Source of the DNA: Aquipluma nitroreducens
GTDB lineage: Bacteria > Bacteroidota > Bacteroidia > Bacteroidales > Prolixibacteraceae
Assembly: GCF_009689585.1 (NCBI RefSeq)
Contig: NZ_AP018694.1
Coordinates: 1,937,001-2,001,000, forward strand
DNA: 64,000 nt
Direction: 5' to 3'
A program made the translations under genes and the position numbers. The notes under the pieces are model-generated. The model ran no database searches and was not told the DNA's origin. It saw only the letters and a list, made by a program, of their open reading frames with translations. This document shows, piece by piece, positions 1 through 26,066 of the stretch (position 1 is its first letter; each line of letters starts with the position of its first letter).

Positions 1-36
1 ACATTTCCGTTTAGAAACCCTTTAATCACAATATTT

Positions 37-159
37 TCACCAATTTCCTAAAATGAGGATGTAATCCTGATCAACGACAAATCTTAGCTCTGTTCCTTCG
101 ATAAAAGCAGCCCAAGTAATCTGATTATCCGTGCGGTCAGTTGCACCAATTTCTCTACA
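37..159 (-). pseudogene. Possible C-terminal gene remnant
   Basis: A 41-codon open stretch on the minus strand ends in TGA and has no start codon. It begins right after an in-frame TAA at 160-162. The translation (IGATDRTDNQITWAAFIEG, then ELRFVVDQDY) has protein-like composition, so it may be the tail of a decayed gene. I do not recognise the family. It could equally be chance. Confidence 0.2.
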
Positions 160-183
160 TTAGCATCTTACCAGCACTAAATC

Positions 184-729
184 ATGGAGCAATACCACCA
201 AAACTTAATCGAAATTTTAAAAAGGTATTTGTCGGACAACGACATCACCATTGTTTCTGAAAACGAAGGTTATTTTGAACTTTTCCACTTCAGTAAGCCG
301 GATGTAGTTATTACTGCCCAATATCTATTGTCTTTACCTGTACACAAATATTTTCATGGGTCAAGCAATAATACCGAAATCGATACAATTGCCAGATTTG
401 AAGTACCTGACGTTGAAGAGAAGTCACCACCAAACTTTTACATATTTCCCATCCACAACCCTAAACGTGGCAAGTTAAACTTTGCGGTGGTTCCAAGTCA
501 AATCGTTATCGAAAGAACTCGCACAAGACATCAAAATGATCTCATTAAAAGACCTTTGGAGGTCACATTTTGGTTGATGCCTGATGATTGTCTATATGAT
601 TGCACGAACATTTCAGCGGAAGGGGAATGGTTCTTTTTGTCGAAAGGTGCCAATGGTAGGATGGCCGATGACATCGATTGGAATTACACTCCTTTTCTAA
701 ATAACTGGCAATTGTTGGTTAATATTTGA
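184..729 (+). CDS. Hypothetical protein (181 aa), mobile-element cargo
   Basis: This is an intact ORF with an ATG start and normal composition. I do not recognise a family. It has no signal peptide and no transmembrane segment, so it is probably cytosolic. It is rich in aromatic and acidic residues, with a Trp/Asp-rich tail (DDIDWNYTPF). It is the only plus-strand gene left of 6.8 kb and converges on the radical SAM gene, with an inferred terminator between them. Lying inside the integrated element, it is best treated as accessory cargo of unknown function. Confidence 0.55.
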   Translation: MEQYHQNLIEILKRYLSDNDITIVSENEGYFELFHFSKPDVVITAQYLLSLPVHKYFHGSSNNTEIDTIARFEVPDVEEKSPPNFYIFPIHNPKRGKLNFAVVPSQIVIERTRTRHQNDLIKRPLEVTFWLMPDDCLYDCTNISAEGEWFFLSKGANGRMADDIDWNYTPFLNNWQLLVNI

Positions 730-884
730 AAAAGGTCAATCTGGGACGATCTGGTGAGTCTGGTGTTTTAGAAAGGTATTTGGTCTTTAGCTACCCTAAA
801 AACTCGTCTAAAAAGTTCCCATTAGTACTGGTTGCAATATCTGCATCTTTAGTTGGGTAAACATCTTTTCAGGTTACAGGAAGT

Positions 885-927
885 AAAAAGGAAACCCTGA
901 CAACTGTTTTACCAAATTGCCAGGGTT
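885..927 (-). terminator. Rho-independent terminator of the minus-strand block
   Basis: Arms at 893-903 and 917-927 (AACCCTG core) form a hairpin with one mismatch. Read on the minus strand it is followed by a T-rich run (TTTCCTTTTT). It sits just 3' of the radical SAM stop codon at 933. Confidence 0.5.
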
Positions 928-932
928 AGTTT

Positions 933-1814
933 CTAAGCATCAAGTCCCTTTCGTGTTGATCTTTCAATATTTACAATTTTCTTTATACTGTCTTTCCATT
1001 TGACGCGAGGATTTCTTTTCAATTTACCATACAGGTCTTTTACCCATTCCAAAGACTGACCAGCAATTAGTTCTTCTGCTCGAACTGATGTAGCGAAATC
1101 AGTTGCACCATTTACCTTTAAAATACCTTTTAAACGATTCGGTAACCCTATCCAAATAGCGTCTGTTACGTAAGGCAAAAGGATATTAACTAATTTAAGG
1201 GTATTTATATCCAAGGCAGGTTCACATGATACACTTGTATGAAAACCCAATAAATGTGCATGTTTTAACGAAGCTAAGCGTTCTTCAAAAGATGGAGCAT
1301 ACGGCTCCCAAAAATTCAATGTTTCAGAATCACTGGAACCAATGGTAAATCGGAACAGAATCTTGTCTTTATAACAATCAAAACTTTCACAAATTGACTC
1401 AATCACAGACAAATGAGGTTTGGTAACAACCAAAATATGATGACCATTTTCGAGTAACCGTTTCATAAATTCAAGTGAATAACTAAGATTCTCCGGCGAA
1501 ATATCATGGCTAGATGGAAACATCGTATATCCGTCTTTCTTTTTTAGCTTCGTCTGAAGTCTTGCTGAATTTACCTCTTCAATTTTCCAGCTATCGACTG
1601 TTTTCCGTTTGAATCGAACGGCCATGGATTTGGCGTAACAGTATTTACAATCATGAGCACATCCATTAATGAAATTGGCGTTCTGTGATGCCCATTCTCC
1701 CGTTCCTGCAACAAGTTTTTCTTTCTTTACGCCATTTGTAGAAGTTTCAACCAATGTTTTCTTTGTTGAATGCTCATTTTTATTTTCTCTTTTCACTGTA
1801 TTGTTATTTTTCAT
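933..1814 (-). CDS. Radical SAM protein (spore photoproduct lyase-like group)
   Basis: Residues 52-59 carry the radical SAM 4Fe-4S motif C-x3-C-x2-C (GCAHDCKYCY). The rest fits a radical SAM half-barrel, for example FPSSHDISPEN and VSCEPALDI. The arrangement resembles small SPL-like radical SAM proteins found on phages and mobile elements. The substrate cannot be inferred. A Lys/Asn-rich N-terminus of about 35 residues precedes the domain, so a shorter start is possible. It is the last gene of a minus-strand block (ParB-methyltransferase, AAA+, HTH, radical SAM), 63 bp after the HTH gene. Family call is firm; a nucleic-acid-repair or modification role is speculation. Confidence 0.75.
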   Translation of the reverse strand: MKNNNTVKRENKNEHSTKKTLVETSTNGVKKEKLVAGTGEWASQNANFINGCAHDCKYCYAKSMAVRFKRKTVDSWKIEEVNSARLQTKLKKKDGYTMFPSSHDISPENLSYSLEFMKRLLENGHHILVVTKPHLSVIESICESFDCYKDKILFRFTIGSSDSETLNFWEPYAPSFEERLASLKHAHLLGFHTSVSCEPALDINTLKLVNILLPYVTDAIWIGLPNRLKGILKVNGATDFATSVRAEELIAGQSLEWVKDLYGKLKRNPRVKWKDSIKKIVNIERSTRKGLDA

Positions 1815-1877
1815 TTTGTAACGATTTTTAATTTATTAATGAAGTCCATTACTTATAATTTTAGAGATCAAATGACC

Positions 1878-2207
1878 TCATATACTATCACTTATCTTCC
1901 ATGATTCACCACGTAAAATCCTTAGTATAACCGAAGACGAAACCCCGTATTCCTGTGCTAAACGAACTTTCCCGTAAACATGAGGAACATACTTACTCCG
2001 GATGTCCAGAACCTGTTCGGGAGTCAGCTTACATTTACGGTTTACAGGTTGGTTGAACTTAACCAATGAACGAGGTTGATTTCCCCTGCATTCACTCTTA
2101 TAGAGGTCGGACAATTCCTGATAGGAAATAAGTTGTCGGTCGGTCTTATGGGCAAAGTCTGTATTCCAGACCTTGCCCACTTCATTTTGTATCGCCATTA
2201 TGTCCAT
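1878..2207 (-). CDS. Small HTH DNA-binding protein (109 aa)
   Basis: The C-terminal half (about residues 62-105) has a helix-turn-helix pattern: LTPEQVLDIRSKY, then YGKVRLAQEYGVSSSVILRI, then LRGESWK. This resembles the DNA-binding repeats of homing-endonuclease and NUMOD-type proteins. The N-terminal half is unrecognised. The start lies 5 bp after the AAA+ ATPase stop, which implies co-transcription and possibly translational coupling. It may guide the ATPase or methyltransferase to DNA or regulate the block; both are inference. Confidence 0.6.
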   Translation of the reverse strand: MDIMAIQNEVGKVWNTDFAHKTDRQLISYQELSDLYKSECRGNQPRSLVKFNQPVNRKCKLTPEQVLDIRSKYVPHVYGKVRLAQEYGVSSSVILRILRGESWKISDSI

Positions 2208-2212
2208 ATCTG

Positions 2213-3097
2213 TTAGTTTTTCAGGTAGTCAATTTCCCACAATAGCTTGAAGTTTTCAGGGTATTCTTTCATCGTATTGGCCATCTTTTCCACCAAACGG
2301 ATAGACCTTTCGGTTAGGAACTCCCAGTTATACCAAAGAAAATCAAGTATAATCTGTGTTTCCATAGATGTTAGTTGATATGGTGCAAGGCACGATGTAT
2401 TGAGCACCACATCAGCAATCCAGCCCCATTGTTCAGCCCAGCCTATATCAAAGTCAGCAACCCGACACCGGGAACGAATGGCATTGCGATGACTTAGCAA
2501 AACTGACTTGGCCAATCCTTTTTCCCTTGCCAACTGAACTTCATCATCCACAGGTAATTTAAAGTTTGAAGTAAATACAAAGATTAGGTTGTCCGTTGGA
2601 ACTGAAAATCCCATTTTACCTTCTTCCTGAAAGTGTGTGATGGCCGCCTGTTGAATGGCGGAAAGGTTATTAAACTGGCTGGTTAAAGACTTTTCATAGG
2701 TAAAGACCTTACTACCGTCCAGCACGTTTTTCATGGTGTTGCAGTTAGGTTCATTCTTCAGGATTTCATCGCAGTCATCAACGAAAATCACGATGTTTTC
2801 ACGTTCAGGATTCAGGTAGTTGATTACCGCCAGTTGGATTCCAAAAGCGAACATGGAAACATTACCTGACACCTGAATATACCTGATTTTTGAATCTTTC
2901 AGGTAGTTCAGCACAGTGTAGGTCTTCCCCAGTCCAGGTGGCGAAAAGAAATAAAGGTGCGGATACCTATCTCCCTCTTTGACAAGGGAGATATTTTTGA
3001 CCAGCTGTTTTAACCTTAAACGGTTTACCTTGCCTCTTTCAATGGCTTCCATCTGGCTCATCCCGAACCGATTGGTTAATTTAATTGACTGTCTCAT
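2213..3097 (-). CDS. AAA+ ATPase (294 aa)
   Basis: Walker A is at residues 52-59 (SPPGLGKT) and Walker B at about 102-109 (IVIFVDDCDE). A sensor-1-like Asn follows (LIFVFTSNF), and an Arg-rich segment (LLSHRNAIRSRC) may hold the arginine finger. The single-domain size and lack of a transmembrane segment suit a soluble AAA+ ATPase that remodels protein or DNA. It lies 36 bp after the ParB-methyltransferase stop and 5 bp before the HTH gene, so it is probably in one operon with them. It is related in style to phage and plasmid ATPases of the DnaC/IstB or RuvB kind, but I cannot place it in a named family. Confidence 0.75.
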   Translation of the reverse strand: MRQSIKLTNRFGMSQMEAIERGKVNRLRLKQLVKNISLVKEGDRYPHLYFFSPPGLGKTYTVLNYLKDSKIRYIQVSGNVSMFAFGIQLAVINYLNPERENIVIFVDDCDEILKNEPNCNTMKNVLDGSKVFTYEKSLTSQFNNLSAIQQAAITHFQEEGKMGFSVPTDNLIFVFTSNFKLPVDDEVQLAREKGLAKSVLLSHRNAIRSRCRVADFDIGWAEQWGWIADVVLNTSCLAPYQLTSMETQIILDFLWYNWEFLTERSIRLVEKMANTMKEYPENFKLLWEIDYLKN

Positions 3098-3133
3098 TGT
3101 ATGATACGCTTTAATGAATGTTTAAAAAATAAT

Positions 3134-4801
3134 CTAAGCAGCAGTAACAAGTTGATAATATGGGTAATCACATACTTGACCTACAAGAACCAAGTGGTCG
3201 GTTTGGCTATCACCAAACTGACTACCATATAACATTTGATTGATTTGATCAAGTTCTTCCCTGTTGTAGTTTTGGTTGCCCAACTCAAGCATTTCACAAC
3301 CAATATGGTAGTATTCTTTGGATAGTTCAGCTCCCAGATAGCCACGGTTCAACAGTAATGCACATTTACCAACCACATTAGAACCACCAAACGGATCACA
3401 TACAAGATCACCTTCATCGCTGAGCATCAGGGTTAGGGTAATTGGCAGCATCGGACTCATTGCTGCCGGATGACCTTCCGAACTGATTTTGAAAATATCA
3501 TGATTTTTACCCACGCTGGTAATGATGATATTCTCGACTTCCTGTTCGTATAGATGGGATTTAATCTTCCCATAATCTTTAGAAATGGACTTGGTTTTCT
3601 TAGATACCTTACCGTTGCTCGCAACATCTTTGCATCCGCCTGTCACTTCAGCTTTCTTTCCGTCAATTGGAAAGGTCAGCATATTGTATTTTGACTTGGT
3701 AGGATCAACCACAAACCAAAGCAGATATTCAATGGAGTTGACCGGACGTTTTACTTTTTCTCCCTGTGGACGTGGATTCTTCTTTGACCAGATCAGAGTG
3801 TCCTTATAAATTAACGGGGTATTTTTACTGATATAATCCCTGACCAGAAAGGGTATTCCCTGAGCTACACCATCCCTATACGTTTCGCCAATGTTGATAA
3901 TGACATTCCCGGATTCTTTCAGGATAGGAAAGAGTTTGTTGAAAATGGTAGCAATATTGGCAGCGTACTCTTCTTTGGTTTCTTCTTGTCCCAGCTGTCT
4001 TACCTGACCATTTTCGTAGTTTCTCAAATCCCAATAGGGTATCGAAGTTGTAACCAGATCGACCTTGCTAGTATAGGTTGCCATTTCGGCCAACCTTACA
4101 CAATCCATGTTAAAGAAATTGGCCTTACCCGGAATTGCAAAGGTGTAATCATGTTTAGTATCCAAAGACAGCCGTTGGTCTATGAACTTGTTGACTTCTG
4201 TGACTGAATAGGTTCCATCTATCAGCTTGTGAGTAAACCCATATTCCTTTTCGTCATCCACAATTTTCTTTTCTTTCAGGAAATCGTAGCAGGTGTCAAC
4301 TTTCCATCCTTTTTCAAAAATACCTTTGGAAAGTACATCGTTTTCAAGGTCATTGTTCAGGACGTACTCAAGCTTGTTCTGAATGACATCATTTTTACAC
4401 CTTCCATTCAACGCCGCTGAAATTTTCTTCGCCCGTTCATAGGGTTTTCCGTCTTCACTTTTCTTTCCCTGTCGGTTGGGGAACATTTTAAAGACTTCAC
4501 GGGCTTCCCGGATTTCGTCTTCAGTGGTTTTCTTTCGGTACAAGTTCAGCATGATACGCTGGTGAAGGGTTGGCACGCCATCCATTATTCGGGCAATCAC
4601 TGTTTCGCCACCAGCCATCCTAATGGCATCTACCATTCGGTAACCGTTGATGATTTCGAGGTCTTCACTTATCTGTATTGGAACCAGTTGTCCATAGGTT
4701 TCATAACTTTCAACCAAGTCTTCATTGGACTGTGGTGAAAAAAACAACTTGAATTCAGGTACCTCCTTGAGGTCTGAAATTTTTACTTCGATATTTTTCA
4801 T
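3134..4801 (-). CDS. ParB-domain / DNA methyltransferase fusion (555 aa)
   Basis: The N-terminal 75 residues look like a ParB/Srx domain (IINGYRMVDAIRMAGG at about 51-66). The C-terminal half is an N6-adenine or N4-cytosine DNA methyltransferase. Catalytic motif IV is TSIPYWD at 252-258, with Ile where the family usually has Pro. The AdoMet-binding motif is DPFGGSN at 469-475. Motif IV precedes motif I, as in the beta class. There is no cognate endonuclease among the neighbours, so it is either an orphan methylase or part of a noncanonical system with the AAA+ ATPase. A palindrome sits 24 bp upstream of the start codon. Confidence 0.8.
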   Translation of the reverse strand: MKNIEVKISDLKEVPEFKLFFSPQSNEDLVESYETYGQLVPIQISEDLEIINGYRMVDAIRMAGGETVIARIMDGVPTLHQRIMLNLYRKKTTEDEIREAREVFKMFPNRQGKKSEDGKPYERAKKISAALNGRCKNDVIQNKLEYVLNNDLENDVLSKGIFEKGWKVDTCYDFLKEKKIVDDEKEYGFTHKLIDGTYSVTEVNKFIDQRLSLDTKHDYTFAIPGKANFFNMDCVRLAEMATYTSKVDLVTTSIPYWDLRNYENGQVRQLGQEETKEEYAANIATIFNKLFPILKESGNVIINIGETYRDGVAQGIPFLVRDYISKNTPLIYKDTLIWSKKNPRPQGEKVKRPVNSIEYLLWFVVDPTKSKYNMLTFPIDGKKAEVTGGCKDVASNGKVSKKTKSISKDYGKIKSHLYEQEVENIIITSVGKNHDIFKISSEGHPAAMSPMLPITLTLMLSDEGDLVCDPFGGSNVVGKCALLLNRGYLGAELSKEYYHIGCEMLELGNQNYNREELDQINQMLYGSQFGDSQTDHLVLVGQVCDYPYYQLVTAA

Positions 4802-4824
4802 TTTTGTTTGTTTTTAAATGATTA

Positions 4825-4847
4825 GTGGGTCTAATGTATTGACCCAC
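4825..4847. promoter_or_regulatory. Inverted-repeat operator candidate, copy 1
   Basis: GTGGGTC, nine bases, GACCCAC is a perfect 7-bp inverted repeat ending 24 bp before the methyltransferase start. On the minus strand it overlaps a plausible promoter (TTTT, 20 nt, TACATTAG). A near-identical element occurs at 5143-5165. A regulator of this operon, possibly the ParB domain itself, may bind here. Confidence 0.55.
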
Positions 4848-4899
4848 GTAATAAAGAAAAAAATATAGGGTACTCACCATCATCTGAAATGAAGGTGAT

Positions 4900-5039
4900 A
4901 ATGAACTGAAGAAATGGAAGTCAATAACAAGGTTATTTCTTCACTACCTTCAGTTCATTGAGGTTGTATTCCTTATCAATACTATCCCATCATGTCAAAG
5001 AACTTCCCCTACTTGGTAAAAGGATCGGTACCAATCCTT
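4900..5039. other. Structured noncoding segment between two identical palindromes
   Basis: There is no convincing gene in 4850-5140. Arms AATGAACTGAAG (4900-4911) and CTTCAGTTCATT (4948-4959) pair perfectly. An inner hairpin is AATAAC/GTTATT at 4923-4937. An alternative pairing is GAAGAAAT (4908-4915) with ATTTCTTC (4935-4942). A 20-bp near-palindrome centred on GGTACC lies at 5020-5039. This could be a small RNA, a centromere-like site for the ParB domain, or an untranslated leader. Confidence 0.4.
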
Positions 5040-5142
5040 AGAATTTTCAGAGCATAGATTGTCCATTCAAGGGATTTTTGTCCCCTGTCAGTTCATAAGA
5101 TCAACACGTTTTATTTGAATTTGACTGTTATTTTATCTATTA

Positions 5143-5165
5143 GTGGGTCTGTGTATATGACCCAC
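5143..5165. promoter_or_regulatory. Inverted-repeat operator candidate, copy 2
   Basis: GTGGGTC, nine bases, GACCCAC again, with matching flanks (ATTAG before, then an A-rich stretch ending AAAAATAT). Similarity to copy 1 runs for about 45-50 bp. It lies just 3' of the 5184-5810 gene on the minus strand. The direct duplication brackets the structured segment. Confidence 0.5.
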
Positions 5166-5183
5166 ATAAAAGACAAAAAAATA

Positions 5184-5810
5184 TCAGTCCGGATAAATCT
5201 CTTTATAATAGTCGTACAACACGGGTTGGATTAGTTTTAATCCATCTTCTGCTGCCTTCTTATCATCAATCCCATCTTTATAATGGTCTTCCCGACCAAT
5301 GGACTTAGTAAACTTTCTTACCTTTTTACCTTCATCGTCAATCCAATAGGCTTTAATAGCCAGATAGGTGATTCCTGTTTGTGGATGTTTGTTTCTTGAC
5401 AATTTGTAGTCAGGATCGATGACAATACGTAATCTCATCAGTTGAAGCATGTATTCACTAATCCGAAGATAAACGTCCCTAACATCTGTAAATTCACCTT
5501 TCCCTTTTTGTATTTCTTCCAAACTGGTAAAGTAGAACTTAACGATTGATTCTTTAAGGTTCTTTAATGCAAATAGATAACCCCAATTTTGACCTCTTTG
5601 ATGAGTCCCAGGTTTAAAATTGTCATCAACGACAAAAGCGATTAATTCATCGACCTTGTTATCAGCAGGTGTACTTTTCATTTTCATGAAATCTTCATAG
5701 TATCGTTTAATTTCTTCTTTCATAATTTTTTCATCATAACCAAGTCCCAAAAGAAGAAGTAACCCCTTTACTACGCCAGTACCACCTATGATTAAATCGA
5801 CAAGTTCCAT
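5184..5810 (-). CDS. Hypothetical protein (208 aa), element-borne
   Basis: This ORF is intact and has a good upstream promoter (5832-5863). I recognise no family. Residues 5-25 are hydrophobic (VDLIIGGTGVVKGLLLLLGL) and could be a weak membrane segment. The remainder is charged and helical, with a basic stretch near residues 120-170. It is the first gene of the minus-strand block but is separated from the methyltransferase by 382 bp that contain the duplicated palindromes. No function is assigned. Confidence 0.55.
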   Translation of the reverse strand: MELVDLIIGGTGVVKGLLLLLGLGYDEKIMKEEIKRYYEDFMKMKSTPADNKVDELIAFVVDDNFKPGTHQRGQNWGYLFALKNLKESIVKFYFTSLEEIQKGKGEFTDVRDVYLRISEYMLQLMRLRIVIDPDYKLSRNKHPQTGITYLAIKAYWIDDEGKKVRKFTKSIGREDHYKDGIDDKKAAEDGLKLIQPVLYDYYKEIYPD

Positions 5811-5831
5811 CTTTTTAAATGCTTAATGGTA

Positions 5832-5863
5832 CAAAGCTAGTAATAATTTTTGAGTTGTGCAAT
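5832..5863 (-). promoter_or_regulatory. Promoter of the 5184-5810 gene
   Basis: Read on the minus strand, TAGCTTTG (5832-5839) matches the Bacteroidota -7 box TAnnTTTG. ATTG (5860-5863) lies exactly 20 nt upstream as a three-of-four match to the -33 TTTG. Confidence 0.5.
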
Positions 5864-6059
5864 ATATATGAACAACTATAAAGCAAAAGTATATAAAGCT
5901 GGCAATTGTGCACTATCACTTTTCGTCTATATTCTGCGTCAATAAAGATTTTTTAAAGATTTAAATCCTAACTTTCGAATATCATTATTTATCTTCATTC
6001 TAAATAATTAATAAATAAAATGATAATCTGTTGGTCAAAACAAGTGATATTTTAATGAA

Positions 6060-6376
6060 ATCTTCTCAAGAAAACATGGAAAGTACTTCTTTTTAAGTGG
6101 TACCTGAGGGAGTAATTATCTGATTTCGCACCTAAACACACAATCGCTGGTACCTGAACATACTTGAATAACTTCTCTCGAAAACATGGAAGGTTGGGTT
6201 GACATATTAGTTCACTTTTCAAGAAAACATGAAAAGTACTTCTATTTGGGCGGTACCTGAGGGAGTAATCAAATGTTTTCACACTAAAACACTTCATCGC
6301 TGGTACCTGAACAAACTTCTCATGAAAACATGGGAAGTTATGAAAATACAGGTTCACTTCTCATGAAAACAAGGAA
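6060..6376. repeat. Iteron-like array with a 153-bp direct repeat
   Basis: Two diverged copies of a 153-bp unit are offset exactly. GGTACCTGAGGGAGTAAT occurs at 6099 and 6252, and ATCGCTGGTACCTGAACA at 6143 and 6296. Inside and after them are five copies of a motif near GAAAACATGGAAAGT (about 6070, 6180, 6223, 6325 and 6365). The 101-codon minus-strand reading frame over it is a by-product of the repeats. The rest of 5811-6416 is AT-rich and holds no gene. Such arrays are typical of origin, partition or copy-control sites. Confidence 0.65.
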
Positions 6377-6416
6377 AGTGAAATGTGATTGGCCAAAAGG
6401 AAATCCAATTTGAATA

Positions 6417-6596
6417 TTACTTCTTTTTCTTTCGTGTCATTACCGTATCAGTTGACATCGAATTGGCCTCGTTGTAACTATGCAGAATGTTCCTGACCAG
6501 CGTTGATAGTGTCACCTTTTCCTTGAGCATGGTTGACATCAATCGTTTTAGCTGATCTTCGCTAATCCTTATATTGATATGACTTTTGTATTCCAT
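6417..6596 (-). CDS. Ribbon-helix-helix (Arc/CopG-like) protein
   Basis: With the ATG at 6596 the protein is 59 aa: MEYKSHINIRISEDQLKRL, followed by helical LSTLVRNILHSYNE and a Lys-rich tail. A beta-strand (HINIRIS) followed by two helices is the RHH fold, which binds DNA as a dimer. A longer frame from 6620 (MCWIFIDT...) exists but lacks RHH character. RHH proteins on plasmids are often auxiliary relaxosome, copy-control or partition proteins. Its position between the repeat array and the initiator-like gene supports one of those roles. The target is probably the adjacent array (inference). Confidence 0.6.
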   Translation of the reverse strand: MEYKSHINIRISEDQLKRLMSTMLKEKVTLSTLVRNILHSYNEANSMSTDTVMTRKKKK

Positions 6597-6800
6597 AGTA
6601 TCTATAAATATCCAACACACTTCAAAAACGTAATGCAGGCCGAAGATTTATTTAATAATTCGCTAAAAAAGAGCAGTATTTGTTAATCCACTCTTTGTTT
6701 ATCAAAATATTTTATGTATATTTTAAATATTGGATCTCGACAGTTACAACCATTAGATATATGAACCCCTGCGTTGATGTGAGTCGAGACACTGATACGT

Positions 6801-7718
6801 ATGGGGTTTCCTTTTTATAACCTTAAAAAAATGATGAATGAAAAAAGAAAAGGAATTTGGATTCCGATTGAATTGATGAGTGACAAAAAACTGGATTGGG
6901 CGAACAAAGCATTGTTGTTTGAAATCGCTTCTTTGCATGAATTACCAGGTGGATGTATCGCTTCAAATGAACACTTTGCTGAACTACTTGGAATAAAGAG
7001 TCCTGCTGCTTCGAAACGAGTAACTAAACTTAAAGAACTTGGTTATATTTCTACTGAAGATGTGTATAAAAAGAGATCATGTGTTGGAAGGATAATAACC
7101 CCGCTTATTAAAATTACAGTAAGGCGTTCTTCCATGGAGGAAAATGCACCCACTGATCAGACAGAATCATCTTCAGAAGAACAGAAAAGAGAAGTTGAAC
7201 AAGAAAAAATAGCAATTCCTGAGATTAAAAATAATGAGCCGACTCGAAATGACGTTCAACACAGGGGTACTTCCGATAGGAACAATACCCCACCTGAGGA
7301 ACCAGAAGGTACTTCCCATACGATCATTGGGGTACTTCCTAAAGAATTAGGGGGTACTTCCCTTGGGAATACAATTAATACATCTATTAATTCAGATATA
7401 AAAGATCATTTATTATACCAGTATACTGGGAAAACTGGTTCTTTTAACTCTTTTGATGATTTATTTATTTCAGAAGAGGAGGTTCCAACTGACTTAACTA
7501 CCAGTGATAGTTCTTCCAGTACTGGAAACAATCCAGCTTTACCTAAAATCTCAACAAAAGAATTTAGAGTTATTATGAATGATTTCTTTGAAGGCTACTC
7601 AAGCTGGGAAGCTGATATGTATGCTCTGGGACTGGAAAAATTTATTGGTAAAACGGAGTATTTCCATTCCAACGATCCAAAGTATATTGGCTTGATCAGG
7701 GAATTCTATGAATTATAG
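6801..7718 (+). CDS. Replication-initiator-like protein with N-terminal winged HTH
   Basis: Residues about 16-95 read GIWIPIELMSDKKLDW, then CIASNEHFAELLGI, then SKRVTKLKELGYIST. This is the helix-turn-helix of phage O/DnaD-like and Bacteroidota plasmid initiators. The middle (about 110-230) is charged and low in complexity with recurring GTS tripeptides. A C-terminal helical domain of about 60 residues follows (KEFRVIMNDFFEGYSSWEADM). The true start may be 6831 (MMNEKRKG). The central DNA carries phased repeats (separate entry), the same plan as lambda O with its origin inside the gene. It probably replicates the excised element. Confidence 0.65.
   Translation: MGFPFYNLKKMMNEKRKGIWIPIELMSDKKLDWANKALLFEIASLHELPGGCIASNEHFAELLGIKSPAASKRVTKLKELGYISTEDVYKKRSCVGRIITPLIKITVRRSSMEENAPTDQTESSSEEQKREVEQEKIAIPEIKNNEPTRNDVQHRGTSDRNNTPPEEPEGTSHTIIGVLPKELGGTSLGNTINTSINSDIKDHLLYQYTGKTGSFNSFDDLFISEEEVPTDLTTSDSSSSTGNNPALPKISTKEFRVIMNDFFEGYSSWEADMYALGLEKFIGKTEYFHSNDPKYIGLIREFYEL
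7264..7425 (+). other. Candidate replication origin inside the initiator gene
   Basis: GGTACTTCC is repeated in the same orientation, with full GGGGTACTTCC copies at 7264-7274, 7329-7339 and 7351-7361 and AAGGTACTTCC at 7306-7316. Spacing is 42, 23 and 22 bp, about two or four helical turns. An inverted degenerate copy (GGAACAATACCCC) is at 7279-7291. An AT-rich tract follows at about 7367-7425. Phased iterons next to an AT-rich unwinding region within the initiator gene match known phage and plasmid origins. Confidence 0.55.
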
Positions 7719-8559
7719 CTCAACCTGTCGAACGAAGTGAGATTGCTGGACCTATATATTGTAGGAATTCCGTTTTTAATTTAAATAACTCCCAACCGAA
7801 CGACAGTGAGTATTCTTAGCCCAGCCATTTGAAAAAAGGAATTCCAACATATTTGTCGCAGACGAATTACTGGCACGATAGAACACCGAAACCCACCCCA
7901 ATTCCGCTCGACCCCTCCCTTTTTTAGATATGGTTAGATTATGTATTAAAATGGTAACCAGACCTAATCCAGTGAGTTCTGGTGTAGTTTCGTTTAGAAA
8001 TAAACAAAGACATTGGTTTGAAGGAGAAAACTCACCAGAATTGAAATAAATGGGACTCTTGGTATTTCTGAAAATTGGCCAGAATTTTTTCAGTCCTTTT
8101 TTCCAAAAGTAATGTTCAATAAACTTTTGCCGGAAAAAATTTTCAGTCGGATCATTGATGACCAATCTATGAGGTAAAAAACGCTTTATGCAATAGGGGA
8201 TACGGCCAGCAGCCAGCCCGGTAGCCCCATACAGAAAAAGGGTCCACGGAGAAAGATCGATCTACTATTTGTTTAGCTTCCTAAGATTTTATAGAAGATG
8301 GTTCCGTTAAGAATCTATCCTGTTCCATTATACAATCGAAACAACATTTGATGTGATAAATTGAACAATTATTTTTTAAGTATGCGGCCAGAACCTACGA
8401 GTACTCTACATTAGCGCGTAAGAATATTACAACACTATTTTGTTAAGTCGATAAAATTGCTTATATTTTAATAAACTCCATCATTCAGGAACTAAGCCAT
8501 TTGATAGGGTAAATAAGCCTTGGGGTCTAAAAAAGTAAGGCAGCCCCATTGACTCAACA
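7719..8559. other. Gene-poor stretch of the mobile element
   Basis: I see no supportable gene. The longest frame (129 codons, minus, 7776-8165) has no family resemblance. GGAATTCC occurs twice in opposite T/A-run contexts (about 7767 and 7841). A GC-rich patch with GCCAGCAGCCAGCCC lies at about 8204-8222 in otherwise AT-rich DNA. It could hold a transfer origin or the recombination directionality region, but no nick-site motif is recognisable. Confidence 0.35.
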
Positions 8560-8916
8560 ATGTATGGAATAAAATATCTCGATATGAAAGAGGTTGCGGA
8601 AAAACTTAAAATGAAATCAGCAGATACGGCGGCACGTTGGTGCATTGACAGAAACATTGAAATAATGTCGTTAGGAAACAAGAGAGTGGTATCTGAATTC
8701 GATTTCAAGTTATCATTTGAAAAGCCCTTAATAGACGTACTAAAACGGAAATATGGTGAAAGTTGGCCAATGTACTATGAAGTGTATAAAAGTGAAGATG
8801 TAACAAAATATTACGAATTAGAAAAAGACTCTAATGTCATGGATTATAAGTCAAGTACTTTCAATCCTGACACATTTTTAAATGAAATCGGTTATGGAAA
8901 ATCTAAAAATACCTGA
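8560..8916 (+). CDS. Excisionase-like HTH protein (118 aa)
   Basis: The N-terminal 40 residues (YLDMKEVAEKLKMKSADTAA, then RWCIDRNIEI) follow the MerR/excisionase HTH_17 pattern, and the rest is unrecognised. The ATG at 8584 (MKEVAEKL) is an alternative start. The 3' end overlaps the integrase start by 23-35 bp, which indicates translational coupling. An Xis-like regulator directly before an integrase fits a recombination directionality factor that controls excision. Function is inferred from fold and context. Confidence 0.6.
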   Translation: MYGIKYLDMKEVAEKLKMKSADTAARWCIDRNIEIMSLGNKRVVSEFDFKLSFEKPLIDVLKRKYGESWPMYYEVYKSEDVTKYYELEKDSNVMDYKSSTFNPDTFLNEIGYGKSKNT

Positions 8917-10204
8917 TAAATACAGAAGAACAGGATTATACATCTATTGTTATAAATGCAAACGTTATTCAAACATCAAAACTGGCTGTTTACGAAAAAC
9001 ATTGGATTGCAATCACCCACCAGAAAGGCAAGTGTATAAACTGAAAGTACATTTCCCCGGCACAAAGAACATGACTCGGACTCACGTATTAAGTACGCGA
9101 GATATAAAAGAGGTTGATAATGAAAGGTTAAAATTCATGGAGCTCTTGAAAACAAACAATTATAACAATGTTGTTATTTCAAGACCTGAAACAACAGGTG
9201 AGGACAGGTATCTGCTCACCTACCAAATGAAAAGGTATTTTGATTTCATTACAAATGGGGGGTTTTACGAACATGAGGATGCTCGCAGACTAACTAATGG
9301 TTCAATAAACGACTACAAGCGGAATTTCAAGTACTTTTTTGAAAGTATTGCTGGCTCAATTAATATAAAAACAATACGAATAGACCAGCTACGAATGGAA
9401 CATGTTGAACTGTTTCACAAGTTCATACGAAAGAAAACCGACTCAAACAAGACATACAACAACATAATGAGCTCGCTTAAAGCATTCTACAACCATTTAA
9501 TTGAATACGAGAAGTTCAAAATCGAAAATTTGTTTGATACAGTTCCTGTACACTCTGTTTTTTATGACCCACAATCGTTTTCTGCCGCTGAATTTCTTAA
9601 AGTTCTGTCGGTTACAAACCGTGAACAAGGTTACGATGTAAAAGAAAAACGTAATAGATTTAAGGAATGGCTACCAACAGCATTTAAATTAGGTGCATTT
9701 ACTGGCCTTAGGCTTGAAGAACTTGTTAATTTGAAGTACAAAGATATTACTGAAATACAAGGGATATTGGTTTTGCAATCAATTAATCAAAAGGCGAACA
9801 AGCTTATCCGAAGTAAAGATAATAGCCGTATCAAAAGAATACCTGTAATTCCTGAATTGCAACAAGTGTTATTTGATGAATGCCATTATATAAACAATAA
9901 AGACATGGATGAATACATCCTTGCCCCTGAATTAGACAGAAATACTGTTAAGGGAATTATCACCAAAGGGTTCACTCATTTTAAAAGAATCGCTGGTATT
10001 GATGAAAACAAATGTTTTAAGGAATTAAGAACAACATATATTAGCAGACATCGGGCTGAACTTGGTGATAGAGGACTTACCGCAATCATTAGTGACCATA
10101 GTAACGCCAATGTGGTTGATAAACATTATACAGCTCAAATAGAAGCTATAAAAAAGAGTATTAATTTCAGGGTATTTTCAAGTGATGAAGTGTGCGTCAA
10201 CTAA
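8882..10204 (+). CDS. Tyrosine recombinase / integrase (440 aa)
   Basis: This is a site-specific recombinase. The catalytic residues visible are R277 (AFTGLRLEELVNL), a beta-hairpin Lys region (RIKRIPVIP), R383 (FKELRTTYISRH), H406 (SDHSN) and nucleophile Y416 (DKHY). The usual box II His-x-x-Arg is Lys380-x-x-Arg383. A SAM-like N-domain precedes it at about 110-215. The extreme N-terminus has a Cys cluster (C23, C26, C36, C43, H45) that suggests a zinc ribbon for arm-site binding. A second possible start is 8894 (MENLKIP). The gene ends about 90 bp from the 3' end of tRNA-fMet, the usual position for an integrase at a tRNA attachment site. Confidence 0.88.
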   Translation: MKSVMENLKIPDKYRRTGLYIYCYKCKRYSNIKTGCLRKTLDCNHPPERQVYKLKVHFPGTKNMTRTHVLSTRDIKEVDNERLKFMELLKTNNYNNVVISRPETTGEDRYLLTYQMKRYFDFITNGGFYEHEDARRLTNGSINDYKRNFKYFFESIAGSINIKTIRIDQLRMEHVELFHKFIRKKTDSNKTYNNIMSSLKAFYNHLIEYEKFKIENLFDTVPVHSVFYDPQSFSAAEFLKVLSVTNREQGYDVKEKRNRFKEWLPTAFKLGAFTGLRLEELVNLKYKDITEIQGILVLQSINQKANKLIRSKDNSRIKRIPVIPELQQVLFDECHYINNKDMDEYILAPELDRNTVKGIITKGFTHFKRIAGIDENKCFKELRTTYISRHRAELGDRGLTAIISDHSNANVVDKHYTAQIEAIKKSINFRVFSSDEVCVN

Positions 10205-10218
10205 GAGTTTCAGAGATT

Positions 10219-10243
10219 TTCCTTACCTCGATTCCTTACCTCA
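10219..10243. repeat. Short direct repeat next to the integrase
   Basis: TTCCTTACCTC occurs at 10219-10229 and 10233-10243, a 14-bp period, just after the integrase stop. These may be recombinase arm or core sites at the element end; the exact attachment core is not resolved here. Confidence 0.35.
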
Positions 10244-10258
10244 CAAATTTAAGGGCAT

Positions 10259-10287
10259 AAAAAAAGTCAGTGTAAAACACTGACTTT
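10259..10287 (-). terminator. Terminator of tRNA-fMet
   Basis: AAAGTCAGTGT (10263-10273), loop AAA, ACACTGACTTT (10277-10287) is a perfect 11-bp stem. On the minus strand it runs into a seven-base T tract, directly 3' of the tRNA gene. Confidence 0.75.
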
Positions 10288-10292
10288 CAATG

Positions 10293-10365
10293 TAGCGGGA
10301 GCCGGACTCGAACCGACGGCCTTTGGGTTATGAGCCCAACGAGCTACCAACTGCTCCATCCCGCA
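10293..10365 (-). tRNA. Initiator tRNA-fMet (CAT anticodon)
   Basis: The cloverleaf of 73 nt lacks an encoded CCA. The anticodon is CAT in the loop CTCATAA. Initiator features are present: positions 1 and 72 do not pair (U and U), and the anticodon stem ends in three G-C pairs (GGG/CCC). The T-arm contains GGTTCGAGTCC. It provides the translation-start tRNA. A Bacteroidota promoter lies upstream and a strong terminator downstream, and the mobile element abuts its 3' side. The gene remains intact. Confidence 0.95.
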
Positions 10366-10436
10366 ATGTATCTTTAGATAATGTATCGTCGTTTTTAAGA
10401 ACTTCGCTTGCTGATTTTATTTCTGCTAAGCGGGTG

Positions 10437-10468
10437 CAAATATAGAAGAACCTTTTAGATTTTCCTAA
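10437..10468 (-). promoter_or_regulatory. Promoter of tRNA-fMet
   Basis: Minus strand TATATTTG (10437-10444) is an exact TAnnTTTG -7 box. TTAG lies 20 nt upstream (10465-10468) as a three-of-four -33 match. The predicted leader is about 65 nt. Confidence 0.55.
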
Positions 10469-10561
10469 TCAGAAATGAAAAAATTATTTATTATTCGTCT
10501 AATCTCATCGTTAAAAAGTATTAATAAACTGTACAGCCGGCTGGTTTTCTCTAAATTCTTC

Positions 10562-23721: not shown

Positions 23722-25062
23722 ATGAAAAAACTTTTTTCTATTGGGTTAGTTATTTTGATGATTTTTTCGCTATCAAGTTGTAACAAATCAGGCAATGGAG
23801 AACTAACGGGAGTAAAGGGAAGAGGAAAATGGTTTGAACCAACTCCTTATGGAATGACCTTTATTCACAGAGGATCTTTCAATCTCGGACCAAATGATCA
23901 GGATGTAACATCATCCTCAACACCAGCAAAAACAGTTTCAGTTGATGCATTTTGGATGGATGATACCGAAATCACCAACAATGAATACCGACAGTTTATT
24001 CAATGGGTTAGAGACTCAATTGCACGAACAACCTTATCGGAGCAGTTTCCGGAATTTATGAATAGTGAGGATCGAAAAGGTAATCCGATTGATCCACCTC
24101 GAATTAACTGGAAAGAAAAATTGGATTGGAGTAATCCGGATTATAGCGAAGCTCTGGCTCCAATGTTTATTCCCGAAAACGAACGGTTTTTCAAGAAAAA
24201 AGAAATCGACTCACGAAAATTGTTTTACAATTACCAGTGGATTGATTTAAAACAGGCTGCCCGACGTGTAAACATGTACAATTATGAAACCCAAAGCTAC
24301 AGTGGTGGAAGTGTAACCGACACAAAAGGAGAAGAAAAAGCAGTAGAAAACCGTTCATCGTTTATTTTTAGCAACCAGGTAAATATCTATCCTGATACCT
24401 TAACCTGGATCAGAGATTTTACATTTTCATACAATGAGCCGTGGGCGACCCGTTATTTTTGGCATCCCGGATTTGATGATTATCCTGTTGTAGGAGTTAC
24501 CTGGGAACAAGCCAAGGCATTCTGCAATTGGAGAACCAAACTTCACAACGATTTCCTTTCAAGCCAAAGAGAAGCAACTTTGCAGGATTACCGATTACCA
24601 ACTGAAGTTGAGTGGGAGTATGCAGCTCGTGGAGATCACCAGTCATCAATGTACCCATGGGGTGGATATTATACCCGCCAGCAAGATGGTGTCTTCCTTG
24701 CCAACTTTAAGCCGTTAAGAGGAAACTATGTTGAAGATGGAGGAATGGCAACCATGAAAGTTGGAAGTTACGAAGCAAATGATTTCGGGCTTTACGATAT
24801 GTCAGGTAATGTTGCTGAATGGACAAGTTCGGCCTATGATGAGTCCGCTTACATGTACATCAATGATTTCAATCCAAACTTTGAATATAATGCAAGACCA
24901 GGAGATGCTCCTGCGATGAAGCGTAAAGTTATACGTGGAGGCTCCTGGAAAGATATTTCCGCATTTCTCCAGGTCTCAACAAGAAGCTTTGAATATCAGG
25001 ATACGACCAAATCCTATATTGGCTTCCGTTGCGTTCGTTCTTCCTTTGGAAACGAATTTTAA
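23722..25062 (+). CDS. gldK: T9SS ring lipoprotein GldK/PorK
   Basis: A lipoprotein signal peptide (lipobox LSSC at about residues 17-20) is followed by a formylglycine-generating-enzyme (SUMF1) fold. Visible landmarks are FWMDDTEITNNEYRQF, YPVVGVTWEQAKAFCNW, RLPTEVEWEYAARG, GLYDMSGNVAEWTSS, VIRGGSWKD and GFRCVRS. GldK forms the periplasmic ring with GldN under the outer membrane and is essential for secretion. The gene lies in porP-gldK-gldL-gldM-gldN order. A close paralogue is at 28700-30043. The fold is not expected to retain oxidase activity. Confidence 0.95.
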   Translation: MKKLFSIGLVILMIFSLSSCNKSGNGELTGVKGRGKWFEPTPYGMTFIHRGSFNLGPNDQDVTSSSTPAKTVSVDAFWMDDTEITNNEYRQFIQWVRDSIARTTLSEQFPEFMNSEDRKGNPIDPPRINWKEKLDWSNPDYSEALAPMFIPENERFFKKKEIDSRKLFYNYQWIDLKQAARRVNMYNYETQSYSGGSVTDTKGEEKAVENRSSFIFSNQVNIYPDTLTWIRDFTFSYNEPWATRYFWHPGFDDYPVVGVTWEQAKAFCNWRTKLHNDFLSSQREATLQDYRLPTEVEWEYAARGDHQSSMYPWGGYYTRQQDGVFLANFKPLRGNYVEDGGMATMKVGSYEANDFGLYDMSGNVAEWTSSAYDESAYMYINDFNPNFEYNARPGDAPAMKRKVIRGGSWKDISAFLQVSTRSFEYQDTTKSYIGFRCVRSSFGNEF

Positions 25063-25085
25063 TTAACGATCTAAATTCTGAACAA

Positions 25086-26066
25086 ATGAATATTGGTGAA
25101 ATACTTAAGACAAAAAGGTGGAAAGTATTAATGGGGTATGTCTATGGTTGGGGTGCTTCCCTGGTACTCATCGGTGCTCTATTTAAACTTCAGCACTGGA
25201 ATCATTCCGGAATCATGCTTACCATTGGTTTGTTGACAGAAGCATTTATTTTCTTCCTTTCTGCTTTTGAACCACCATTGGAACAACCTGACTGGGCCAA
25301 AGTTTATCCTGAATTACAGGAAGATTATGAACTTTTAGAACCGATTGAAGAAGCTCAGAATAATGGCAAGGTTGGAAATTTAGACGCATTATTAAACAGC
25401 ACCAATATTACTCCTGAGCTGTTGGCAAAAATTGGCAAAAGCTTAGTTGATTTGTCTAATACCGCATCAGGAATAAGCGACATTTCAACAGCAACTCTGG
25501 CGACCGACATCTATGTCAGGAACCTGAATTCAGCTTCAGAATCGATGATGGCGTTTTCAGAAATGAATACTCAGGCCAACCATACAATTAATAATTCGAT
25601 TGGTGAATTGGTAAATTCATATAGTAACACAGCACACAAGATTTCGGAAACAGGTGAAAATATGCTGTCGAGACTAAATGAATCAAGTGTAAAATTCACC
25701 AAACAAATGGATGAATCAGGCAGTAAACTTACCGAATCTTACCAAAGGTTTTCTGGCACCATGGAAAAGGGATTAAAAGATTTCGAAGTAAATTCTTCGA
25801 GCTATGGTGAAAGCTTACATAAACTGAACAAGAATATTGAATCATTGAATGTAGGCTACGAAAAACAATTAAAAGGGACAAGCGATCAAATACATGCCTC
25901 AGCAAAATTCTTCGAAGAGCTTAACCAGATGAACCAGATTATCGCTTCATCGGCACAAGAAATGAAGAAATACAAGGAAAATGCCGAAAAATTAAATTCA
26001 CACCTAGATGCTCTGAATTCGGTTTATGGAAATATGCTGGGAGCCATGAATTATAAAAAGAAGTAA
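25086..26066 (+). CDS. gldL: T9SS/gliding motor protein GldL/PorL
   Basis: Two transmembrane helices at the N-terminus (VYGWGASLVLIGALFKLQHW and GLLTEAFIFFLSAFEPP) carry the charged motor residues. A long cytoplasmic coiled-coil region of about 250 residues follows. GldL is the inner-membrane ring that uses proton flow to rotate GldM. The ATG at 25086 was chosen because an upstream frame start at 25029 lies inside gldK and encodes no family sequence. gldM follows 17 bp later. Confidence 0.95.
   Translation: MNIGEILKTKRWKVLMGYVYGWGASLVLIGALFKLQHWNHSGIMLTIGLLTEAFIFFLSAFEPPLEQPDWAKVYPELQEDYELLEPIEEAQNNGKVGNLDALLNSTNITPELLAKIGKSLVDLSNTASGISDISTATLATDIYVRNLNSASESMMAFSEMNTQANHTINNSIGELVNSYSNTAHKISETGENMLSRLNESSVKFTKQMDESGSKLTESYQRFSGTMEKGLKDFEVNSSSYGESLHKLNKNIESLNVGYEKQLKGTSDQIHASAKFFEELNQMNQIIASSAQEMKKYKENAEKLNSHLDALNSVYGNMLGAMNYKKK

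What the first reader, a model, noticed from the sequence alone, without database searches (positions are those of the whole stretch)
7264..7425. Phased repeats inside the initiator-like gene suggest a lambda-O-type origin
Seen: GGTACTTCC repeats at 7264, 7306, 7329 and 7351 are spaced 42, 23 and 22 bp. An inverted degenerate copy and an AT-rich tract follow, all inside a gene with an N-terminal HTH and a separate C-terminal domain. Known: lambda O and several plasmid initiators carry their origin inside the initiator gene. Inference: the element replicates after excision from this internal origin.
Basis: partly seen in the sequence, partly recalled or inferred. Interest (0 to 1): 0.75.

Follow-up and report, generated by a model that had tools for sequence, protein, structure and literature searches.

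The report
Replication origin inside its initiator gene
A mobile DNA element sitting in a bacterial chromosome appears to keep its replication start site inside the gene for the protein that recognises it, as phage lambda does; this is a new, well supported example of a known arrangement rather than a new kind of system.

Summary
Codon shuffles that keep the protein never reach this cross-frame repetition (0 of 500). 15 of 30 homologue ORFs (window gene included) and 14 of 21 viral-contig ORFs (many near-identical) pass the same test, against 1 of 66 control ORFs. Their repeats, mostly 21-24 bp apart, use different words in different lineages; the gene's most AT-rich stretch follows in 17 of 18 clean cases. 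Lambda O and Tuc2009 Rep pass; TP901-1 Rep does not (21/500). The protein shares PHROG families with lambda O and TP901-1 Rep but not Pfam PF04492. Best reading: a lambda-O/TP901-1-type internal origin. The element is 23,388 bp, not 1-10,250: it starts 13.1 kb left of the window, with 45-bp att repeats in tRNA-Met and an empty site in a relative. Excision and replication were not tested. New member of a known kind. A second conserved non-coding array (6057-6380) is unexplained and the main rival origin.

The parts
6831..7718 (+). replication initiator gene (upstream in-frame start at 6801); N-terminal winged-helix domain about codons 1-90, linker carrying the iterons, C-terminal part
   Evidence: PHROG 'replication initiation', 'O-like' and 'DnaD-like' families E 5e-12 to 2e-9; Pfam HTH_36 below cut-off; homologues
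7266..7274 (+). iteron 1 (GGTACTTCC)
7308..7316 (+). iteron 2
7331..7339 (+). iteron 3 (in a different codon frame)
7353..7361 (+). iteron 4
7368..7449 (+). AT-rich tract, probable DNA unwinding element; 7368-7417 is the most AT-rich 50-mer of the gene
8882..10204 (+). tyrosine recombinase (integrase), 440-aa ORF
   Evidence: Pfam Phage_int_SAM_1 above cut-off, Phage_integrase just below; XerC/XerD-like
10292..10336 (-). right attachment repeat, 45 bp, in the 3' half of tRNA-Met (10292-10365); identical copy at genome 1923904-1923948, 13.1 kb left of the window
   Evidence: empty site in relative G014
6057..6380 (.). second, unrelated non-coding repeat array (ACTTCTC-type pseudo-palindromes and GGTACCTGA sites), conserved in L010; function unknown
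2213..3097 (-). AAA+ ATPase of the same element; possible replication partner, not shown
   Evidence: Pfam AAA, phrog_1250 and phrog_168, phage relatives

Best explanation
The gene at 6831-7718 encodes the replication initiator of a 23.4-kb tRNA-Met-integrated element, and its origin lies inside the gene. The N-terminal winged helix binds the four GGTACTTCC iterons in the linker codons. The complex opens the AT-rich tract just downstream (7368-7449), and the C-terminal part recruits the helicase machinery. Shown here: the repeats, DNA-level constraint across reading frames, the same layout in many homologues, the AT tract, and the element ends. Inferred: binding, unwinding, helicase recruitment, and use after excision.
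For: Cross-frame repetition exceeds protein-preserving shuffles (0 of 500). 15 of 30 homologue ORFs, window gene included, and 14 of 21 viral-contig ORFs, many near-identical, reach 5/500 or less; 1 of 66 control ORFs does. Iteron words differ between lineages, mostly 21-24 bp apart, after the HTH. L017 keeps five degenerate sites in 23/22/23/22 phase (score 35.0; maximum of 500 shuffles 21.8). In 18 of 18 genes picked for clean arrays the 80 bp after the array are more AT-rich than the rest of the gene (Wilcoxon 8e-6), and in 17 of 18 the most AT-rich 50-mer of the gene starts within 30 nt of the assumed array end. HTH similarity tracks iteron similarity: Mantel 1 of 2000 with 21 genes, weaker, 25 of 2000, with 18 genes and only residues encoded before the array. 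Lambda O and Tuc2009 Rep give 0/500 in the same test. The protein shares PHROG families with lambda O (phrog_678, 391, 345) and TP901-1 Rep (phrog_186, 428, 270). In 7 of the 16 annotated records fetched, the next gene is labelled replicative or DnaB-like helicase, DnaC or DnaC-like loader. TP901-1 and Tuc2009 replisome organizers bind direct repeats within their own genes, which serve as ori (PMC8965321, passage).
Against: 15 of 30 homologue ORFs and 7 of 21 have no significant array; among them is Leptospira LE1 Orf5 (322/500), the homologue with a history as a replicon. TP901-1 Rep, a positive control, reaches only 21/500, and the best word in TP901-1 and Tuc2009 is not a clean array. The window's AT tract alone is marginal against codon shuffles (P 0.06; 10 of 18 genes below 0.05), so amino-acid composition explains part of it. 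No helicase or DnaC/P-like loader was identified in the 19 element ORFs scanned with Pfam. Another repeat array (6057-6380) lies nearby. No binding, copy-number or circular-form data exist. Structure models were useless (mean pLDDT 34 and 38).
Confidence: 0.82

Rival explanations
1. The iterons are operator sites only: the HTH protein binds its own gene to repress or time its expression, or to set incompatibility, and the origin lies elsewhere, most likely in the conserved array at 6057-6380.
For: A second array of pseudo-palindromes and GGTACCTGA sites is conserved in the related element L010 although the initiators are only about 50% identical. Plasmid initiators often repress themselves (recalled).
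Against: None of the 20 best iteron-matrix sites of the element (score 8.5 or more) lies in 6057-6380. Operators are usually upstream of a gene (recalled), whereas in the 18 clean cases the array starts 222-464 nt into the ORF and is followed by AT-rich DNA. Experimentally studied initiators with internal repeats use them as the origin (PMC8965321, passage; PMC7466680, passages).
Confidence: 0.1
2. The repeats are a by-product of a repeated peptide in a disordered linker (15-residue unit with GTS and VLP motifs) and have no DNA function.
For: Two successive spacings (22+23) make 45 bp = 15 codons, so every second copy encodes the same peptide.
Against: Copy 3 encodes VLP and the others GTS while the DNA is identical. 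Protein-preserving shuffles do not reproduce this (0 of 500). Some homologues use all three frames: L033, L018 and L015, L040 and L052-L057 and L059.
Confidence: 0.03
3. The array is a fossil: initiator and origin worked in an ancestor, but the element is now immobile and never replicates on its own.
For: No conjugation, capsid or helicase gene was identified in the 19 element ORFs scanned with Pfam; other ORFs, such as L008 15189-16199, were not scanned. A DDE transposase ORF and a second, 196-aa integrase-like ORF lie in the left half.
Against: The initiator frame is open, the iterons are exact, the 45-bp att copies are identical, and the integrase is an open 440-aa ORF.
Confidence: 0.15

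Closest known systems
Phage lambda ori within gene O
   Same: Four iterons 20-24 bp apart inside the initiator gene (features of NC_001416), AT-rich tract beside them (PMC7466680, passages). Gene O passes the same cross-frame test, 0/500.
   Different: The proteins are linked only through PHROG profiles; no PF04492 hit for the window protein, and the homologue profile does not find lambda O significantly (E 0.15 in a three-sequence search). Different iteron word. No P-like loader follows the gene.
TP901-1 Rep (ORF13) and Tuc2009 Rep2009 replisome organizers of lactococcal phages
   Same: Direct repeats inside the gene act as ori and are bound by the protein (PMC8965321, passage; record note 'contains origin of replication' for Tuc2009). 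TP901-1 Rep shares phrog_186, 428 and 270 and a below-cut-off HTH_36 with the window protein.
   Different: Other C-terminal domains (DnaB_2, Rep_Org_C). Tuc2009 Rep shares none of its five listed PHROG families with the window protein.
Leptospira phage LE1 Orf5 and p74 Rep
   Same: Top-ranked phage and plasmid hits of the protein search, N-terminal third to half only. The p74 partition-plus-rep region directs autonomous replication (PMC2229662, passage), and rep genes of L. interrogans plasmids, one of them 27% identical to Orf5, support replication of vectors (PMC4338851, passages).
   Different: No significant internal array in LE1 Orf5 (322/500), weak in p74 (25/500). They live as plasmids with partition genes beside rep.
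RepA_N-type plasmid initiators with internal origins
   Same: Origin within the rep gene (recalled, not tested here).
   Different: No RepA_N family among the Pfam matches of this protein.

Membership tests
lambda-O-type internal origin (arrangement) | Tandem iterons inside the coding sequence of the initiator | tested here: met
lambda-O-type internal origin (arrangement) | AT-rich unwinding tract adjacent to the iterons | tested here: met
   76% against 65% AT; the most AT-rich 50-mer of the gene starts 2 nt before the assumed array end. Marginal alone against codon shuffles (P 0.06)
lambda-O-type internal origin (arrangement) | Initiator binds the iterons | not testable with these tools
   Indirect only: HTH identity correlates with iteron similarity
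lambda-O-type internal origin (arrangement) | Autonomous replication from this site | not testable with these tools
   needs an experiment
Pfam PF04492 Phage_rep_O (lambda O family) | Match to the PF04492 profile | tested here: not met
   lambda O matches; the window protein does not
PHROG replication initiation / O-like families | Significant match to profiles that lambda O or TP901-1 Rep also match | tested here: met
   phrog_270 5e-12, phrog_428 7e-11, phrog_678 1e-9, phrog_186 2e-9
TP901-1/Tuc2009 replisome organizer | C-terminal DnaB_2 or Rep_Org_C domain | tested here: not met
Integrative element in a tRNA gene | Integrase, flanking att repeats and an empty site in a relative | tested here: met
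   (in G014 the two flanks overlap by exactly 45 bp)

The most novel reading that the evidence does not exclude
It moves between phages, plasmids and phage-less tRNA elements across bacterial phyla, swaps C-terminal helicase-recruiting parts, and drifts through new iteron words while keeping the 22-bp phase by running the repeats through different codon frames. In this element it works beside a second conserved array (6057-6380), giving a two-site replicon.
Probability: 0.33. Interest if true: 0.5.

Novelty: new member of a known kind. Interest (0 to 1): 0.36.

Why it matters
It gives a candidate self-contained replicon in an element without recognised phage or conjugation genes, and a simple test (cross-frame repeats against codon shuffles) that finds other internal origins. 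Because many lineages carry their own iteron word beside their own winged helix, the set is a natural catalogue of protein-DNA specificity pairs, useful for compatible vectors and for predicting incompatibility.

Tried and rejected
Homologue searches with the single protein in genome contigs and viral contigs found none; profile and whole-genome searches did. Folding the initiator and the AAA protein without an alignment gave mean pLDDT 34 and 38, so no fold search was made. Rfam at E 0.5 or less found only the tRNA in 5500-10500. PDB sequence search gave one weak MarR hit for the initiator profile (E 0.044) and none for the AAA protein. PADLOC (6 element proteins) gave methyltransferase hits for the methylase, two weak candidate hits for the radical-SAM protein and none for the other four. 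The idea that the second array is bound by the same protein was dropped: none of the 20 best matrix sites lies there.

Rows and choices: L001 (a copy of the window gene) was left out, and L007-L014 and L016 were not scanned for ORFs because they overlap other loci. Control ORFs are mechanical, non-overlapping ORFs of 180-400 aa, not all real genes. Of the 15 passing ORFs, L004, L006 and L035 have a best word that is A-rich or AT-rich. The 18 genes are the other 12 plus 6 of the 14 passing viral-contig ORFs (near-duplicates dropped), so they were picked after seeing the arrays. Three of the failing ORFs (L015 second ORF, L026, L030) are only 93-112 aa; DNA beyond them was not tested. Two viral-contig loci had no complete ORF (L051, L058). 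L045 and L046 show a visible 22/21/22 array but fail the cut-off (52/500 and 31/500). The 21-gene Mantel test includes L036, L038 and L045, which fail the cut-off, and its first 125 residues can include iteron-encoded ones; one search repeats it without both and is weaker.

Full report
Observation. GGTACTTCC occurs exactly at 7266, 7308, 7331 and 7353, spacings 42, 23 and 22. No other exact copy exists in the 64-kb window. The copies lie in gene 6831-7718 (in-frame start also at 6801). Copies 1, 2 and 4 share a frame and encode GTS; copy 3 is in another frame and encodes VLP.

Is it more than chance or protein repetition? I counted identical 8-mers at most 200 nt apart and in different frames, and compared the count with 500 shuffles that keep the protein and the codon usage. 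Window gene: 11 against a mean of 1.79, 0 of 500 as high. Of 30 homologue ORFs (window gene included), 15 reached 5/500 or less, against 1 of 66 mechanical control ORFs from the window and loci. Of 21 homologue ORFs of viral contigs, 14 did, many of them near-identical. Positive controls: lambda O 0/500 and Tuc2009 Rep 0/500, but TP901-1 Rep only 21/500; in the last two the best word does not form a clean array.

Homologues. Own genome included, 6 of 140 genomes of the taxonomic family have one, 2 of 393 in an order sample and 7 of 395 in a class sample. In annotated collections, 44 phage records and 7 plasmid records match, all below 60% identity and none covering 80% of the protein. The nearest homologues, L002 and L003, carry five sites each: four GGTAGTTCC and one GGTACTTCC in L002 (spacings 22, 23, 45, 22), three GGTAGTTCC and two GGTAGTTCT in L003 (23, 22, 23, 22). 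L017, from another family of the class, keeps five degenerate sites at 23, 22, 23 and 22 bp; the phased matrix score is 35.0 against a maximum of 21.8 in 500 shuffles, although the plain cross-frame test does not see it (307/500). More distant genes carry other words at the same place: CCCCTTCGGA and variants (Pseudomonas phages), GGGTATTCAG (Lysinibacillus phage), GGACAAAAATGTCC (L019; similar in L044), GCAAACGGAC (L052-L057, L059). Fifteen of 30 ORFs and 7 of 21 show no significant array.

Does the HTH track the iteron? Over 21 genes, similarity of the first 125 residues and of the iteron consensus correlate (Spearman 0.31, Mantel 1 of 2000); the 14 pairs with at least 50% identity average a motif similarity of 9.1 against about 5. 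Restricted to 18 genes and to residues encoded before the array, the correlation is weaker (0.21, 25 of 2000; 17 close pairs average 8.0, 136 others 5.1). This fits a domain that reads its own gene's iterons, but shared descent contributes.

AT tract. In 18 genes chosen for clean arrays, the 80 bp after the array are more AT-rich than both the rest of the gene and the 80 bp before it in 18 of 18 (mean 70%, 59% and 60%; Wilcoxon against the rest 8e-6). The most AT-rich 50-mer of the gene begins within 30 nt of the assumed array end in 17 of 18; L003 is the exception. Against codon shuffles 10 of 18 are below 0.05; the window gene is at 0.06, so amino-acid composition explains part of the effect.

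Protein family. PHROG profiles place the protein among replication initiation proteins (phrog_270 5e-12, phrog_428 7e-11, phrog_678 'O-like' 1e-9, phrog_186 2e-9). Lambda O matches phrog_678, 391 and 345; TP901-1 Rep matches phrog_186, 428 and 270; Tuc2009 Rep shares none. The window protein does not match PF04492, and the homologue profile does not find lambda O, TP901-1 or Tuc2009 Rep with confidence (E 0.15, 0.027 and 0.25 in a three-sequence search). The C-terminal part is shared with L003 but not clearly with L002 or L017, which suggests an N-domain-plus-origin module with exchangeable C-termini. In 7 of 16 annotated records fetched, the next gene is labelled helicase, DnaC or DnaC-like loader.

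The element. The 45 bp 10292-10336, inside tRNA-Met 10292-10365, recur exactly at genome 1923904-1923948. In the relative G014 the left and right flanks overlap by exactly these 45 bp (387242-387286), which is the empty site. The element is therefore genome 1923904-1947291, 23,388 bp, and starts 13.1 kb left of the window. It carries the integrase ORF (8882-10204), the initiator, a ParB-like/DNA-methylase fusion, an AAA ATPase, a radical-SAM protein, and a left half with Peptidase_S41, thioredoxin-like proteins, a DDE transposase, an HTH_3 regulator and a 196-aa integrase-like ORF. No capsid, conjugation, DnaB or DnaC gene was identified among the 19 element ORFs scanned with Pfam (10, 9); smaller and some other ORFs were not scanned. 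A sister element, L010, shares the radical-SAM, 109-aa, AAA and methylase genes at 64-72% identity while the initiator is 50% identical.

Known comparisons. Lambda and Shiga phages have the origin, iterons plus AT-rich tract, in the middle of O (PMC7466680, passages). TP901-1 ORF13 and Tuc2009 Rep2009 bind direct repeats within their own genes that serve as ori (PMC8965321, passage). For mycobacterial prophages an origin upstream of or inside repA is suggested, with lambda as the analogy (PMC7157519, passage). The p74 rep region and rep genes of L. interrogans plasmids support autonomous replication (PMC2229662 and PMC4338851, passages), yet LE1 Orf5 has no significant internal array. The arrangement is thus known and this element is a new member. 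In the listings of searches (open-licence papers only; one returned none) I saw no title or abstract about such an origin in an integrative element of this kind; I did not read those papers through.

What remains open. Binding, unwinding, helicase recruitment, excision and copy number are inferred. The second array at 6057-6380 is conserved in L010 (7508-7714). Its exact 16-mer occurs in 2 of 140 family genomes (own and G085), and with one mismatch allowed in 31 of 140. It may be a partition site, an operator or a second origin.

Noticed in passing
window 6057-6380; L010 7508-7714: A second conserved non-coding array: five pseudo-palindromes of the ACTTCTC...GAAAACATG...AAGT type alternating with GGTACCTGA sites (unit 153 bp in the window, 88 bp in L010). 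The exact 16-mer ATCGCTGGTACCTGAA occurs in own genome and G085 of 140 family genomes and once in each of 4 viral contigs, not examined. Candidate partition site, operator or second origin.
   Followed up: partly
genome 1923904-1947291 (window coordinates -13096 to 10291): Full element of 23,388 bp in tRNA-Met with a 45-bp att and an empty site in G014; the window shows only its right 10.3 kb.
   Followed up: yes
G012:C98 23269-47994; G011:C28 111569-114196; G010:C373 12485-15146: In three same-genus genomes the same two flanks are separated by about 24.7 kb (G012) or 2.6 kb (G011, G010), so this tRNA-Met may be a hot spot with other insertions; no initiator homologue was found in these genomes.
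   Followed up: no
L015 1030-2116 (-); L043 3965-5537 (+): In two separate sources a 112-aa HTH-only ORF matching the initiator profile lies upstream of the full initiator gene.
   Followed up: no
window 3134-4801 and 2213-3097: ParB-like N-terminus joined to a DNA methylase, beside an AAA ATPase whose 76 phage relatives include Burkholderia phages FLC6/FLC8 and many Acinetobacter phages (one labelled putative clamp loader).
   Followed up: partly
window 7729-7741 and 7797-7811; L002 about 2297-2310; L003 about 2207-2218: A short CGAACGAAGTGAG-like sequence recurs just after the initiator stop codon in three related loci (read by eye), beside an inverted repeat in the window (7760-7777/7832-7849).
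   Followed up: no
window 25029-26066 (+): The only control ORF with a cross-frame repeat excess at 5/500 or less (3/500); not examined.
   Followed up: no
L026 2504-3635; L030 2501-3650: In a Bacteroides phage and a Lactobacillus phage the HTH part is a separate gene of 93-96 aa followed by another ORF, labelled O-like in the Lactobacillus record: possibly a split initiator.
   Followed up: no
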